Shown: positions 3,036-47,075 of the stretch, piece after piece
Layout of the letters: each line of letters begins with the position of its first letter
How positions within the stretch are numbered: the first letter of the stretch is position 1
DNA from: Thermoleophilaceae bacterium
GTDB taxonomy: Bacteria > Actinomycetota > Thermoleophilia > Solirubrobacterales > Thermoleophilaceae
DNA length: 55,590 bases
Assembly (NCBI GenBank): GCA_036378175.1
Contig: DASUWY010000081.1
Span: 1 to 55,590, forward strand
Direction: 5' to 3'
Translations under genes and position numbers: made by a program
Notes under the pieces: generated by a model
The model's input: only the letters and a program-made list of their open reading frames with translations
What the model was told of the DNA's origin: nothing
Databases searched by the model: none

Positions 3036-3968
3036 ATGTATCACGTGCAGAGGGCGGAGGCGATCGAGCTCGGGGCGGCGCCGGGACTGGAGGGTCGCGC
3101 GCAGGGACTGCGGCGCGCGACGCTCGTGGGACGCGACGTGGGCGCGGTGCACACCGGCTTCGCACTCGTCACGCTCGACCCCGGCGGCTGGGTCGGCACG
3201 CACGTGCACTCCACCGAGCAGAGCTTCTACATCCTGCGCGGCAACCCGCTGTTCACCCTCGACGGGCGCACATACAGGCTCGCGCCGGACGAATGCGGGC
3301 TGATCCCCGTGGGCGTGCCGCACTCCTGGCGCGCCGCGGAAGGAGAGGAGCCGCCGCTGTTCCTCGAGATGAACGCGCCCGCGCCGCGCCTGCCGGGCGC
3401 GAAGCAGCCGGACACGTTCTGGCTTGGCGAGGCGGCCGCGGATGGCCCCGCCGAGTCGCCCGACATCCGCGACCCGCGAAGTCGCCAGTTCTTCCGCCTT
3501 GGTGAGGGCCAGATGAACGTGGACAACCTCAAGGTGGGGATGCAGGTGAACGCCCCGACCGTTTCGGCGAGCATGGCCACCGCACTCCTCGCGTACAGCG
3601 GCGTGGCCGTGAAGATGCTCGTGGACTCGCGGCTGGGCGCCGTGCTCCACACCATGTTCATGGTCGAGTACCAGCCCGGCGCGGTCATCCACCCGCACGA
3701 CCATCCGCTCGAGGAGACGTACTACATCCTCCACGGCGAGGTGGAGGCGATGGCCAACAACGAGGAGCCCTTCGTACTGAAAGCCGGCGACGTCTTCTGG
3801 ACCGGCGTCGGCTGTACGCACGCCTTCGAGAACACGACAAACACGACCGTCAGGTGGCTGGAAACCCAGTCTCCGCAGCCGCCTGCGAACCACTCCTATC
3901 GGCACGACAGAGACTGGGACTATCTCGCTGAAAAGCTGGAAGAGGGGAGAAACGATGTATCGCGCTGA
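3036..3968 (+). CDS. Bicupin protein, putative metal-dependent enzyme
   Basis: A 310-residue protein made of two cupin domains. Domain 1 (about residues 45-110) has GTHVHSTEQSFYILRGNP with the His-x-His-x3-Glu metal motif, then PVGVPHSW supplying the last His. Domain 2 (about 205-275) has HPHDHPLEETYYILHGEVEA and GVGCTHAFEN. Both metal sites look complete. Family relatives include ureidoglycine aminohydrolase, oxalate decarboxylase and quercetin dioxygenase-like proteins, so the reaction cannot be named. Its 3' end overlaps the MetE-like gene by 14 bases, so the two are co-translated. Expression from a leaderless promoter next to an XRE-cupin regulator suggests induction by a catabolic substrate. 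Confidence 0.85.
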   Translation: MYHVQRAEAIELGAAPGLEGRAQGLRRATLVGRDVGAVHTGFALVTLDPGGWVGTHVHSTEQSFYILRGNPLFTLDGRTYRLAPDECGLIPVGVPHSWRAAEGEEPPLFLEMNAPAPRLPGAKQPDTFWLGEAAADGPAESPDIRDPRSRQFFRLGEGQMNVDNLKVGMQVNAPTVSASMATALLAYSGVAVKMLVDSRLGAVLHTMFMVEYQPGAVIHPHDHPLEETYYILHGEVEAMANNEEPFVLKAGDVFWTGVGCTHAFENTTNTTVRWLETQSPQPPANHSYRHDRDWDYLAEKLEEGRNDVSR

Positions 3969-5043
3969 CGTATTGGGCTCACTGCTGCGGCCCGCCTACC
4001 TGGCCGAGGGACGTGAGAAGCACCAGGCAGGCCAGCTGTCCGACGAAGAGTTCAAGAAGCTCGAGGACCGCGCCGTGGACGAGGCGATCGCGCTGCAGGA
4101 AGGTGCGGGCGTCGACGTGGTGACCGATGGAGAGATGCGGCGCTTCACCTTCTTCGACCAGTTCACGGCGGCGCTCGAAGGCGTGTCGCACGAGGAGGGC
4201 GAGGCGGTGCCGTTCCACAGCCAGCCCGGGAAGGTGGACATCGACTTCCACAGCCCGGTGTCCGTCACGGAGAAGGTCAAGCGCAAGCAGATGATCAGCC
4301 CGGCGGAGTTCGAGTACGCGAAGGCGCGCGCGAGCAAGCCGGTGAAGGTCACGCTGCCGAGTCCCCTCATGTTCTTCACGATGTGGTCGCCGACGCATTC
4401 GCCGGCCGCATATGACGACCCGTTCGAGCTGTTCGCCGACGGTGTGGAGCTCGTGAAGGAGGAGGCGCGGGCGCTCGCTGATCTCGGGTGCGAGTACATC
4501 CAGATCGACGCGCCGGACTTCGGCCAGCTCGTGGAGGACTCGGAACGCGAGCGGTGGGAGCGGCTGGGGATTCCCGTCTCGCGCGTGATGTCGGAGGGCG
4601 TGGAGATGCTCAATGCGGTGGCGGACGTGCCGGGGGTCACCTTCGGCCTTCACCTCTGCAAGGGCAACTACCAGTCGCTCTGGATCAGCGCCGGCGGCTA
4701 CGAGGAGATCTCCTCGCACGTGTTCAAGGGCACCCCCAACTTCGACAGGTACCTGCTCGAGTACGACGACGAGCGCTCCGGCGGCTTCGAGCCGCTGGCC
4801 GACCTGCCGGACGACAAGGTGGTGGTGCTCGGCCTCGTGTCCACGAAGCACGACGACCTCGAGAGCGTCGACTTCTTGAAGAGCCGCGTTGAGGAGGCCG
4901 CCAAGCACCACCCGCGCGAGCAGCTGGCGATCTCCACACAGTGCGGCTTCGCCTCGGTGGCGATGGGCAACGAGATCAGCCGCGAGGCGCAGGAGCAGAA
5001 GCTGCGCCGCGTGGCCGAGGCAGCGCGCGAGATCTGGGGGTAG
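3955..5043 (+). CDS. MetE C-terminal-domain protein (zinc-dependent methyl/thiol transferase)
   Basis: A 362-residue protein matching only the C-terminal catalytic barrel of cobalamin-independent methionine synthase. The zinc ligands can be seen: FGLHLCKGN carries the His and Cys, and STQCGFASVAMGN carries the last Cys. ADLGCEYIQIDAPDFGQLVE matches the conserved substrate-site strand. Full MetE is about 750 residues and has an N-terminal half that is absent here. Stand-alone proteins of this type include archaeal core MetE, epoxyalkane:coenzyme M transferase and demethylases, so it probably moves a methyl or thiol group in the catabolic pathway rather than making methionine. It is the second gene of the bicupin operon. 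A hairpin-rich region with two palindrome copies follows it. Confidence 0.85.
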   Translation: MYRADVLGSLLRPAYLAEGREKHQAGQLSDEEFKKLEDRAVDEAIALQEGAGVDVVTDGEMRRFTFFDQFTAALEGVSHEEGEAVPFHSQPGKVDIDFHSPVSVTEKVKRKQMISPAEFEYAKARASKPVKVTLPSPLMFFTMWSPTHSPAAYDDPFELFADGVELVKEEARALADLGCEYIQIDAPDFGQLVEDSERERWERLGIPVSRVMSEGVEMLNAVADVPGVTFGLHLCKGNYQSLWISAGGYEEISSHVFKGTPNFDRYLLEYDDERSGGFEPLADLPDDKVVVLGLVSTKHDDLESVDFLKSRVEEAAKHHPREQLAISTQCGFASVAMGNEISREAQEQKLRRVAEAAREIWG

Positions 5044-5114
5044 GACGGCCGTTTTGCGCCCGCTTACGCGGCACGAACGGCAGCAATGAGGGGTGGACCC
5101 GCCGGAGCTGAGCT

Positions 5115-44014: not shown

Positions 44015-44045
44015 GGGCCCGAAAAGTTACAGCGCCAGAGCGCTC

Positions 44046-45473
44046 TTACCGCCGCCCCAGCTCCGCTTCGGGAAGCCGAAGGAGCACGACCAGGGCCACC
44101 GCAGCGAGCGGAGCGGCCACCAGGAAGACGCTCTGAACGGCGCTTGCCACCGACGCGCCCGCGTCCGCACGTGCCGTGAAGACGGCTCCGAGCGTCGCAG
44201 CGCCCACCGATCCACCGAGTGCCCTGAAGAACGTGGTGGTCGCCGTGGCGATGCCCAGACGCGTTCGCTCCACGCTGTTCTGCACCGCGATCACGAGCAC
44301 CTGGCTCACGAGGCCGAAGCCGAGCCCGAACAGGAGCAGGGCGGCACCCGTGTCCACCGCGGACCGCCGCTGCGCGAACCCCGCGAGCAGCACGAGGGCC
44401 GCCGTCATCAGCGCCAGCCCGATCAGCGGAAAGCGCTTGTAGCGGCCTGTCTTCGCGATGCTCCGCCCCGACAGCGTGGTGGAGATCGTGGTCCCGACCA
44501 TCATCGGCACGAGCAGTAGTCCGGCTTGCGTCGGGCTGAGTCCGACCGCGGCCTGCAGGAAGAGCGGCACGAACACGGTGACCGCGAACAGCGCGGCTGT
44601 GCCGAAGAAGAGCCCTGCGCTCGCCACCGCCACGGCCGGGCTGGTGAGCATGCGCATCGGCACGATTGGATCCTCCACGCGCCGCTCGCGCACCACGAGG
44701 AGCAGCGAGAACGTGACCGTTGCCGCGATCAACACGGCGATCGGCGTCGAGCCCCAGCCGTAGCGACCTCCGCCCCACACGCAGGCGAGCACGAACGCCC
44801 CGGTCGCGCCCGCGAGCAGGATGCCGCCGAGCACATCCAGCGGGGTCTCTGGGCGCTCCACCTTTGCCGCCGGCAGCTTGGAGCGAAGGGCGAGCAGCGC
44901 GGCGAGGCCCACCGGTACGTTCACGTAGAAGATCCATCGCCAATTCGCGTGCTGGACGAGCAGCCCGCCAACGAGCGGTCCGAGCACCGCCGCAGCGGCG
45001 AATGTGGCTGCGATGTAGCCCTGGTAGCGGCCACGTTCCCGCGGCGGAACGAGGTCGCCTACCGCTGCCATGGCCAGGGTCATGAGGCCGCCCGCGGCCA
45101 CACCCTGAACGGCGCGGGCGGTCACGAGCTGGGTGATGTCCTGCGCCGCGCCGCACAGCGCCGAGCTCGAGACGAACAGGACGATCTGCAGCTCGAGCAG
45201 ACGCTTGCGGCTGTGCCGATCTCCGAGCTTGCCCCAGATCGGTGTGGCTGCGGTGGATGCCACCACGTACGAGGCCACCACCCACGAGAGGTCGGTCACG
45301 CGGCCGAGGTCTTTGGCAACCGTGGGCAGCGCGGTGGCCAGGATCGTCTGGTCGAGCACCGCCGGCAGCATCGCGAGCACGATTGCCGCGAAGGCGAACC
45401 GAACATCCGGAGCGGCCGGTGCTTGCGCGAGACTGGGATTTCTACCTGTTCGAGTTGTCGCTGAAGCCGTCAT
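44046..45473 (-). CDS. MFS multidrug efflux pump, DHA2 (EmrB/QacA) family
   Basis: A 475-residue transporter with 14 predicted spans. AMLPAVLDQTILATALPTVA is the span-1 motif, WGKLGDRHSRKRLLELQ motif A, and ARAVQGVAAGGLMTLAMAAV motif B. Like the pump at 28163 but only distantly related. The gene is divergent from a MarR regulator; its promoter (TTGACA-17-TAATCT) is overlapped by a dyad, so MarR probably represses it until a ligand is present. Confidence 0.9.
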   Translation of the reverse strand: MTASATTRTGRNPSLAQAPAAPDVRFAFAAIVLAMLPAVLDQTILATALPTVAKDLGRVTDLSWVVASYVVASTAATPIWGKLGDRHSRKRLLELQIVLFVSSSALCGAAQDITQLVTARAVQGVAAGGLMTLAMAAVGDLVPPRERGRYQGYIAATFAAAAVLGPLVGGLLVQHANWRWIFYVNVPVGLAALLALRSKLPAAKVERPETPLDVLGGILLAGATGAFVLACVWGGGRYGWGSTPIAVLIAATVTFSLLLVVRERRVEDPIVPMRMLTSPAVAVASAGLFFGTAALFAVTVFVPLFLQAAVGLSPTQAGLLLVPMMVGTTISTTLSGRSIAKTGRYKRFPLIGLALMTAALVLLAGFAQRRSAVDTGAALLLFGLGFGLVSQVLVIAVQNSVERTRLGIATATTTFFRALGGSVGAATLGAVFTARADAGASVASAVQSVFLVAAPLAAVALVVLLRLPEAELGRR

Positions 45474-45481
45474 GCGCGGTA

Positions 45482-45510
45482 AGATTAGATATCGAATTGT
45501 TAGATGTCAA
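45482..45510 (-). promoter_or_regulatory. Promoter of the MFS pump
   Basis: On the minus strand: TTGACA (45510-45505), 17 bases, TAATCT (45487-45482). It overlaps the MarR start codon and the dyad at 45484-45497. Confidence 0.7.
45484..45497. promoter_or_regulatory. Candidate MarR operator
   Basis: ATTAGATATCGAAT is a 14-bp palindrome with one mismatched pair. A direct repeat of TTAGATATC/TTAGATGTC (15 bases apart) also runs through the region. It lies on the pump's -10 box. Confidence 0.6.
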
Positions 45511-45941
45511 ACGATAGACCAAGAACCCAGCCGATCGGCCTTCACGTGCAGCGCGTGGCGAAGGTGCTCAACCGCGCCTTCGAGGACGAGCTCGTGGCCG
45601 CGGGCGGCTCCGTTCCCATGTGGCTGATCCTGGTGTCGCTGAAGAGCGGGCGTCCCGAGACGCAGCGCGAGCTGGCGAGCGCGGTGGGCATCAAGGGCGC
45701 GACGATGACCCACCATCTCGACGCCCTCGAGAAGGCTGGCCTCGTAACGCGTGGACGCGACCCGTCAAACCGCCGCGTTCAGCGTGTCCAGCTAACGGCG
45801 GAGGGCGACGCGGCGTTCGATCGGCTGCGCAAGGTGGCGATCAAGTTCGACAAGCGCCTGCGTGAGGGGCTTTCCGAACAAGAGCTGTCGAGCGTGAGCC
45901 AGGTGCTGGACCGCCTGGCCGCGAACGCCTCGCGCCCCTAA
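45504..45941 (+). CDS. MarR-family repressor of the divergent pump
   Basis: A 145-residue winged-helix regulator: N-terminal helices IGLHVQRVAKVLNRAFEDEL, the recognition helix region TQRELASAVGIKGATMTHHL with LEKAGLVTRGRDPSNRRV, and a C-terminal dimer helix. The first seven bases of the gene overlap the pump's -35 box. There is no ribosome binding site and the ATG lies soon after a possible -10 (TAAGAT, 45480-45485), so its mRNA may have a very short leader. Confidence 0.88.
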   Translation: MSNDRPRTQPIGLHVQRVAKVLNRAFEDELVAAGGSVPMWLILVSLKSGRPETQRELASAVGIKGATMTHHLDALEKAGLVTRGRDPSNRRVQRVQLTAEGDAAFDRLRKVAIKFDKRLREGLSEQELSSVSQVLDRLAANASRP

Positions 45942-45970
45942 AGCTCACACGCGCGCGCGCCGATCCCAGG

Positions 45971-46295
45971 GTGGTGCGCTTCGTCGCGGCCACCCTCCTC
46001 GCCACGCTCGCGTTGACCTGCGCGGCCGCCGCGGCCGCGTCGTACCCGCACACGTTCGGCCCGGTGAAGAGAAACCCCGCGGACTCGCTCGTGAAGCTGC
46101 CGATCGACAGCTTCCGTTACGACTACGCCCGCCACTGCACCACGCGCCCCACCCCCGGCGCGCTGGCCATGGTCTCGTGGCTCGAGGACCACTCGAACGG
46201 CGTGTTCTGGGGAATCATGCGCTGCGAGAAGTTCGGCCCGCACAACTACAGCCTCCACTCCGACGGGCGTGCGATCGACTGGCATCTCGACCGTC
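45971..46295 (+). pseudogene. 5' fragment of a secreted peptidase-like gene
   Basis: Starts with a signal peptide (VRFVAATLLATLALTCAAAA) and continues NPADSLVKLPIDSFRYDYAR, then FGPHNYSLHSDGRAIDWHLD. The His/Asp pattern HxSLHxxGRAxDWHLD resembles M15/extensin-type peptidases of actinobacteria. Straight after WHLD the frame turns into Arg-rich nonsense. The true continuation is missing and the sequence joins part of another gene. Confidence 0.7.
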
Positions 46296-46490
46296 GCGTT
46301 CGAGGACTGCGACCTTCGCGGGGCCGACCTCACGGGCGCGCACTTCGAAACCGTCGAACTACGCGGCTGCGAGCTCGACGGCCTCCGTGGCGCAAATTCG
46401 CTCCGCGGCATACGCATGCCCTGGAGCGACATCGTCGAGAACGCCGGCCTCTTCGCAGGCGCCTGCGGGGTGGACGTTCTAGACGACTAG
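46291..46490 (+). pseudogene. 3' fragment of a pentapeptide-repeat gene
   Basis: In another frame than the fragment before it, this reads VAFEDCDLRGADLTGAHFET, then VELRGCELDGLRGANSLRGI, then MPWSDIVENAGLFAGACGV and a stop. The A(D/N)LxG pattern and the C-terminal MPWSDI...AGLFA are typical of pentapeptide-repeat proteins, which usually have about 200 residues. Only the last third remains and it has no start of its own apart from a GTG at 46269 in the neighbouring fragment. Confidence 0.75.
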
Positions 46491-46574
46491 ATCTCACGTA
46501 GCGGCCGCGATCAGTCCGAATCGCGTCCCTTGATGACGCGGCTCCGACTTGGGCAATGAAGGGGTGACTTGGAG

Positions 46575-46623
46575 GACGTGGTTGATCTAGACACTGATAG
46601 TCAGCGTTTGGATCGACCACGTC
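46575..46623. repeat. Long near-perfect hairpin
   Basis: Arms 46575-46592 and 46606-46623 pair at 15 of 18 positions, the three mismatches being transitions that G-U pairs could hold on one strand. The 13-base loop itself contains CTGA-TAG-TCAG. It lies in the 159-base gap after the pseudogene fragments. It may be a decayed mobile-element end or a terminator. Confidence 0.65.
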
Positions 46624-46633
46624 GAGAACTGCC

Positions 46634-46657
46634 GTCTATGACCTATGACCTATGACC
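46634..46657. repeat. Heptanucleotide tandem repeat
   Basis: GTCTATG, ACCTATG, ACCTATG and a partial unit. It contains the stop codon of the minus-strand gene that begins at 47075, as the repeat at 32946-33011 does for its gene. Confidence 0.8.
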
Positions 46658-47075
46658 CGGTGCTGAACGCCCGCAACGCCAGCGTCACAACGGCAATCAC
46701 CGAGATGGTCATGATCCCCATCTCGTTGCGGACCACGGCTCGCGCCAGCAGCACCTGCTCGCGCCGCTCGAGCGCCTCGATGTCCTCGATCCCGCGCTTC
46801 TCGATCTCGCGCTGGGCAACGCCAGCGCGGAACGCCTCGGCCACCAGCGCGATCACCAGCAGCGAGACGCCGTACAGGTAGTGAAGATCGGACGCGGCCC
46901 GCTTGCCCTGACCGATCAAGAGAAACAGCCCCAGCGCCACCTGCAGGATCACCACTCCCTGCGCCACTCGCAGCAGGTACCAGAAGATCACCGACGGGAT
47001 GCGGCGGAGCCAGGCGACGCCACCCCAAACAGCGGCCGCGAGGTTCGTGGCGAGGACCGCGATCCCCACGGCCAT
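46650..47075 (-). CDS. Four-helix membrane protein divergent from nuoA
   Basis: A 141-residue membrane protein with spans at about 3-20 (GIAVLATNLAAAVWGGVAW), 30-55, 65-82 and 115-135 (MGIMTISVIAVVTLALRAFS). Between spans 3 and 4 lies a charged helix (QREIEKRGIEDIEALERREQ). No known family was recognised. It shares a 77-base upstream region with the complex I operon, so it may be related to respiration, but that rests on position alone. The stop codon lies within a heptamer repeat. Confidence 0.7.
   Translation of the reverse strand: MAVGIAVLATNLAAAVWGGVAWLRRIPSVIFWYLLRVAQGVVILQVALGLFLLIGQGKRAASDLHYLYGVSLLVIALVAEAFRAGVAQREIEKRGIEDIEALERREQVLLARAVVRNEMGIMTISVIAVVTLALRAFSTGS

What the first reader, a model, noticed from the sequence alone, without database searches (positions are those of the whole stretch)
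45971..46490. Chimeric pseudogene: peptidase-like 5' end joined out of frame to a pentapeptide-repeat 3' end
The first part stops making sense right after DWHLD, and from 46291 another frame carries VAFEDCDLRGADLTGAHFE to a proper end. The junction (46285-46300) records a deletion that fused two genes. A long hairpin and a heptamer repeat lie just downstream, which may have promoted the event.
Basis: seen in the sequence. Interest (0 to 1): 0.55.

Follow-up and report, generated by a model that had tools for sequence, protein, structure and literature searches.

The report
Two adjacent genes fused by deletion
In this bacterium about 690 bases have dropped out between two neighbouring genes, leaving the front half of a cell-wall enzyme gene joined, in the wrong reading frame, to the tail of a repeat-protein gene; it is an ordinary dead gene remnant.

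Summary
Window 45971-46291 reads as about the first 108 residues of an exported zinc-peptidase-like protein. One base later, 46293-46490 reads in another frame as the last 63-65 residues of a pentapeptide-repeat protein. The only other same-genus genome held (G001, contig JAICJR010000208.1, a Thermoleophilaceae MAG) has both genes complete, in this order, 22 nt apart. Against it the window lacks a net 690 nt exactly between the two matches. The missing piece was not found elsewhere in the window's genome. The fusion removes the peptidase's H182, H185 and H187, which correspond to catalytic residues of VldE, and two thirds of the pentapeptide protein, so both genes are very probably dead. Low dN/dS in both remnants says the loss is recent. 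A repeat-driven misassembly is unlikely (no shared word over 7 nt near the breakpoints), but no reads could be checked. Promotion of the deletion by the hairpin or heptamer is not supported: the hairpin begins about 280 nt past the breakpoint, and the heptamer array also occurs in the undeleted relative. The hairpin is itself one of 11 dispersed copies of a palindromic element in this genome, mostly near gene 3' ends; that is the more curious item.

The parts
45971..46291 (+). 5' remnant of an exported M15/LAS-like zinc peptidase gene (GTG start, signal peptide, then residues aligned to about 3-108 of 205 in G001)
46292..46292 (+). junction base; net 690 nt (G001 L011 4176-4865 or 4177-4866) missing here
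46293..46490 (+). 3' remnant of a pentapeptide-repeat protein gene (G001 residues 126-188 of 188, plus two further Asp codons and TAG)
46292..46501 (+). out-of-frame, arginine-rich read-on of the peptidase frame to its first stop
46482..46635 (.). 154-nt stretch absent from the G001 locus (11 nt there); holds the hairpin
46572..46626 (.). palindromic dispersed element (model R1, 55 positions); one of 11 loci in the genome
46636..46656 (+). CTATGAC x3, overlapping the 3' end of the 141-aa minus-strand gene; similar array in G001

Best explanation
A deletion of about 690 nt in the lineage of the window's genome removed the last 97 codons of an exported LAS/M15-like zinc peptidase gene, the short spacer, and the first 125 codons of the pentapeptide-repeat gene next to it. 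It left a one-base junction that puts the second remnant out of frame. Shown: both intact parents in tandem in the same-genus genome, the extent of the missing piece, and no match to it elsewhere in the genome. Inferred: that the tandem pair is the ancestral state, that neither remnant makes a working protein, and that the deletion was an illegitimate (non-homologous) event.
For: G001:C294 has the 205-aa peptidase (3852-4469) and the 188-aa pentapeptide protein (4492-5058) on one strand 22 nt apart. blastn gives collinear blocks 46027-46291 = 3911-4175 and 46293-46481 = 4867-5055, inside shared flanks on both sides (rsbW side 84.6%, 141-aa gene side 86.8%). A one-breakpoint join of G001 fits best with 690 nt out. 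The missing DNA gives no match in the window's genome, and each parent protein matches there only at the remnant. The remnant keeps H97 and D104 and loses H182, H185 and H187; among 30 aligned family members H97, D104 and H182 occur in 30 of 30, H185 and H187 in 29 of 30. In VldE, the closest solved fold (Z 12.1), alanine at H301, D308, H370, D372, H373 or H375 abolished activity (PMC11667670, passages read). dN/dS of the remnants is 0.15 and 0.25, against 0.13 and 0.23 for the two intact neighbours, as for a recent loss.
Against: The tandem pair is known from one genome only (G001). In the other 4 family genomes with an intact peptidase no pentapeptide match lies in the stretch fetched around it, and 28 of 29 peptidase loci from genome contigs show no pentapeptide match in the DNA held. 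The ancestral state therefore rests on the fit of both remnants to G001, not on several outgroups. Codon constraint still visible in both remnants would also fit an assembly error in an intact locus. Only 1 of 9 amino-acid differences in the peptidase part could be polarised.
Confidence: 0.85

Rival explanations
1. Assembly or library artefact: both genes are intact in the organism and the contig skips about 690 nt.
For: No reads are available. Both remnants still show codon constraint like intact genes. One copy of the hairpin element (C67:31902-31954) stops at a contig end, so this assembly does break at repeats.
Against: The longest word shared between the two breakpoint regions in G001 is 5 nt within 20 nt and 7 nt within 100 nt, too short for a repeat-collapse join. 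The missing piece gives no match in any of the 89 contigs at the sensitivity used. The neighbours are collinear with G001 apart from two other length differences.
Confidence: 0.1
2. The fused ORF (176 aa, or a frameshifted reading) is a new expressed protein rather than a pseudogene.
For: The peptidase frame stays open to 46501 and keeps a start codon and signal peptide.
Against: The tail is an out-of-frame reading of a pentapeptide gene. The second half of the peptidase active site is gone. No slippery sequence was evident at the junction by eye. No second instance of the fusion was found.
Confidence: 0.03
3. Two partial genes were brought together by some other rearrangement and were never a tandem pair in this lineage.
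For: The locus has other changes: an MFS-marR pair sits upstream where G001 has a 53-nt gap, and a 154-nt stretch lies downstream that G001 lacks.
Against: Both remnants sit in the order, strand and flanks of the G001 pair, and the join is at one base.
Confidence: 0.02

Closest known systems
Deletion-fusion pseudogenes of adjacent bacterial genes (general class, recalled; not taken from a paper read here)
   Same: Single deletion between two neighbours, both truncated, frame broken
   Different: Nothing distinctive found
VldE (Spr1875) C-terminal MT3 domain, L,D-endopeptidase of Streptococcus pneumoniae
   Same: Fold of the intact G001 relative (Foldseek E 7.2e-5; VIA Z 12.1, rmsd 2.2 over 108 residues) and the H-x6-D ... 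H-x-D/N-H-x-H residues
   Different: 15% identity; the window's copy lacks the H-x-x-H-x-H half, so it is a remnant and not a working member
Pentapeptide-repeat proteins (PF00805, PF13599)
   Same: Right remnant passes PF00805; the intact G001 protein passes PF00805, PF13599 and PF13576
   Different: Only about a third of the protein is left; the intact G001 protein is far below the NCBIfam cut-offs of named subfamilies such as Qnr, MfpA and HetL

Membership tests
Gene-fusion pseudogene by deletion | Both parent genes intact and adjacent in a close relative | tested here: met
   G001:C294; one relative only
Gene-fusion pseudogene by deletion | Missing segment absent from the rest of the genome | tested here: met
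   genome 95% complete, so not absolute
Gene-fusion pseudogene by deletion | Reading frame broken at the junction | tested here: met
Gene-fusion pseudogene by deletion | Junction real in the reads | not testable with these tools
   no reads held
LAS/M15-like (MT3, VldE-type) zinc peptidase | Fold of the intact relative matches | tested here: met
   (model pLDDT 88.9)
LAS/M15-like (MT3, VldE-type) zinc peptidase | H-x6-D first half of the zinc site in the window remnant | tested here: met
   SLHSDGRAIDWH
LAS/M15-like (MT3, VldE-type) zinc peptidase | H-x-H second half of the zinc site in the window remnant | tested here: not met
   deleted. The window copy is therefore not filed as a working peptidase
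LAS/M15-like (MT3, VldE-type) zinc peptidase | Curated family match of the intact relative (Pfam, NCBIfam, E up to 0.1) | tested here: inconclusive
   no match
Pentapeptide-repeat protein PF00805 | Score above gathering cut-off | tested here: met
   27.5 against 20.2 bits for the remnant; 58.3 for the intact G001 protein

The most novel reading that the evidence does not exclude
The hairpin at 46572-46626 belongs to a dispersed palindromic element, found in 4 of 31 genomes of the family and without a match in Rfam, that makes its surroundings unstable. Both the 690-nt deletion here and the 143-nt length difference just downstream (window against G001) would be products of such instability.
Probability: 0.06. 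Interest if true: 0.4.

Novelty: new member of a known kind. Interest (0 to 1): 0.13.

Why it matters
As a finding it is ordinary: one more recent gene-decay event, in a gene pair that most of the family lives without. It is useful as a clean, measured example: parents known, junction located to the base, loss recent. It also warns that automatic annotation could call the 176-aa ORF a hypothetical secreted protein. The dispersed palindrome nearby is the part worth separate attention.

Tried and rejected
Programmed frameshifting: considered and dropped, because the second half of the peptidase active site is deleted and no slippery run was seen at 46285-46300 by eye. Microhomology at the breakpoints: with G001 as stand-in, at most 1 nt at the exact junction (read by eye) and no shared word above 5 nt within 20 nt. 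The true ancestral bases are unknown, so short microhomology is not excluded. Hairpin or heptamer as cause: the heptamer array is in the undeleted G001 too, and the hairpin begins about 280 nt past the junction in a stretch that G001 lacks. Polarising changes with outgroups: only 1 of 9 amino-acid differences could be assigned, to the window, so it says little. Sequence search of solved structures with the peptidase profile: 0 matches at E up to 1; the fold search was needed. Rfam on 45900-46700: 0 matches at E up to 1. A literature search on deletion-fusion pseudogenes was seen as a listing only, and nothing was used.

Mistakes of mine: one search failed (file not yet present). One search used the wrong strand for 3 of 6 sequences and was discarded and redone. 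In one search the one aligned copy lacking H185/H187 is L039, whose C-terminal part looks frame-shifted in the alignment; it was kept in the counts.

Full report
Observation. Translation in the frame of 45971 gives a signal peptide and a sensible protein to DWHLD at 46291, then an arginine-rich reading to a stop ending at 46501. The next frame, from 46293, gives VAFEDCDLRGADLTGAHFETVELRGCELDGLRGANSLRGIRMPWSDIVENAGLFAGACGVDVLDD and a stop. The first part hits no Pfam family at E up to 1. The second hits PF00805 above its cut-off.

Relatives. A DNA search with 45941-46540 over 41 genomes (own and relatives) found matches in 15 at E up to 0.001. In the same-genus genome G001 there are two separate, collinear blocks on contig C294: window 46027-46291 at 88% and window 46293-46481 at 85%, with 691 nt of G001 between them. 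Read out, that contig (L011; the same record, by length and coordinates, appears as JAICJR010000208.1, a Thermoleophilaceae MAG, L029) has a 205-aa gene at 3852-4469 and a 188-aa gene at 4492-5058. The first is the peptidase-like protein and the second a pentapeptide-repeat protein. Flanks agree on both sides: an rsbW-like ATPase gene upstream, a 141-aa minus-strand gene downstream. The best one-breakpoint join of G001 leaves out 690 nt. The window keeps roughly residues 3-108 of 205 and 126-188 of 188, the latter followed by two more Asp codons.

Is the missing part elsewhere? Not found. The G001 stretch 4160-4880 has no DNA match in the window's genome at E up to 0.001, and the two G001 proteins match only the two remnants at E up to 1. 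The genome is rated 95% complete in 89 contigs, so absence is strong but not absolute.

How widespread are the parents? In 31 genomes of the family, own included, the peptidase is found in 6 and the pentapeptide protein in 4. The two lie together only in G001 and, as remnants, in the window. In G006 both exist, on different contigs. Of 29 peptidase loci found in genome contigs, only L029, which is G001 again, holds a pentapeptide match. Both genes are therefore patchy and dispensable in this family.

What was lost. A model of the intact G001 protein (30-row alignment, pLDDT 88.9) matches the C-terminal domain of VldE of Streptococcus pneumoniae: Foldseek E 7.2e-5; VIA Z 12.1, rmsd 2.2, 108 aligned residues, 15% identity. 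Hedgehog, LdcB/DacB and MepA chains follow at Z about 5. Passages of the VldE paper (PMC11667670) give H301, D308 and H375 as zinc ligands and report that alanine at any of H301, D308, H370, D372, H373 or H375 removes activity. By motif spacing these correspond to H97, D104, H182, N184, H185 and H187 here (my inference). H97, D104 and H182 are kept in 30 of 30 aligned relatives, H185 and H187 in 29 of 30. The window keeps the first two and has lost the rest. It also lost the first 125 residues of the pentapeptide protein. Neither remnant is likely to function.

Age. Nei-Gojobori dN/dS between window and G001 is 0.148 for the peptidase remnant and 0.248 for the pentapeptide remnant, against 0.13 for rsbW and 0.232 for the part of the 141-aa gene present in G001. 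Differences by codon position are 5/4/22 and 6/6/17. Read in the other two frames the pentapeptide part gives 2.8 and 2.0. Most of the divergence was thus gathered while the genes were working, and the deletion is recent. The segments are short and only 1 of 9 amino-acid differences could be polarised, so this is a direction and not a date.

Assembly error? The longest word shared by the two breakpoint regions of G001 is 5 nt within 20 nt and 7 nt within 50 and 100 nt, which does not offer an assembler a repeat to join on. Reads would settle it and are not held.

Hairpin and heptamer. The heptamer CTATGAC x3 (46636-46656) has a counterpart in the undeleted G001. The hairpin (46572-46626 as modelled) lies in a 154-nt stretch where G001 has 11 nt. 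It begins about 280 nt past the junction, so neither is tied to the event. The G006 pentapeptide protein ends ...VLDDDE and the window's ...VLDD, whereas G001 ends at ...VL. This hints that G001 is the one that lost the downstream stretch. The hairpin recurs: a search of the window's genome with 46482-46650 gave nine hairpin loci that I took up, this one included (weaker and shorter matches in the same list were left aside, one of which, C24:101767, the model later recovered). A covariance model from these nine found 11 loci in the own genome, 5 in G001, 5 in G022 and 2 in G042, and none in the other 27 of 31 family genomes at E up to 0.001 (both-strand hits at one place counted once; the model was trained on 9 of the 11 own loci). 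In the nine loci inspected, the element lies within 100 nt of the 3' end of a long ORF, or overlaps it, in eight. C18 was unclear; ORFs were picked mechanically by length and third-position G+C. Rfam has no match. A terminator-like or REP-like role is a guess.

Verdict. It is a new instance of a very common kind of event.

Noticed in passing
window 46572-46626; also G000 C7:77592, C10:32801, C14:4957, C18:8850, C24:90304, C24:101763, C24:118708, C40:18896, C41:27999, C67:31902: Dispersed palindromic element of about 50 nt (GACGTGGTTGATCTAAACGCTGATAGTCAGCGTTTnGATCGACCACGTC), 11 loci in this genome, 5 in G001, 5 in G022, 2 in G042; mostly near gene 3' ends; no Rfam match for the window copy.
   Followed up: partly
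window about 44036-45960: A DHA2-like MFS efflux transporter gene and a divergent marR gene stand between rsbW and the peptidase remnant, where G001 has only a 53-nt gap; the closest G001 match is 66% identical on another contig.
   Followed up: partly
window 46482-46635 against L011 5056-5066: Second length difference between the two genomes just downstream; protein ends (VLDD here, VLDDDE in G006, VL in G001) hint that G001 lost it.
   Followed up: partly
G017:C8:667504-667994 (L021, L022): A pentapeptide relative matches in two overlapping pieces, one covering query residues 25-100 and one 98-188, as if that copy carries a frameshift.
   Followed up: no
L037 (CAMCUD010000008.1): A record titled Bifidobacterium breve MAG carries a peptidase 46% identical to the G001 protein, among Solirubrobacteraceae hits; possibly mislabelled or misbinned.
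   Followed up: no
L039 5001-5595 (Svornostia abyssi J379): The C-terminal half of this peptidase homologue loses alignment after LLLAPDSAG, including the HxH motif; it may be frame-shifted.
   Followed up: no
G000 C67:31902-31954: One palindrome copy ends exactly at the contig end (contig length 31954), so the assembly breaks at this element.
   Followed up: no
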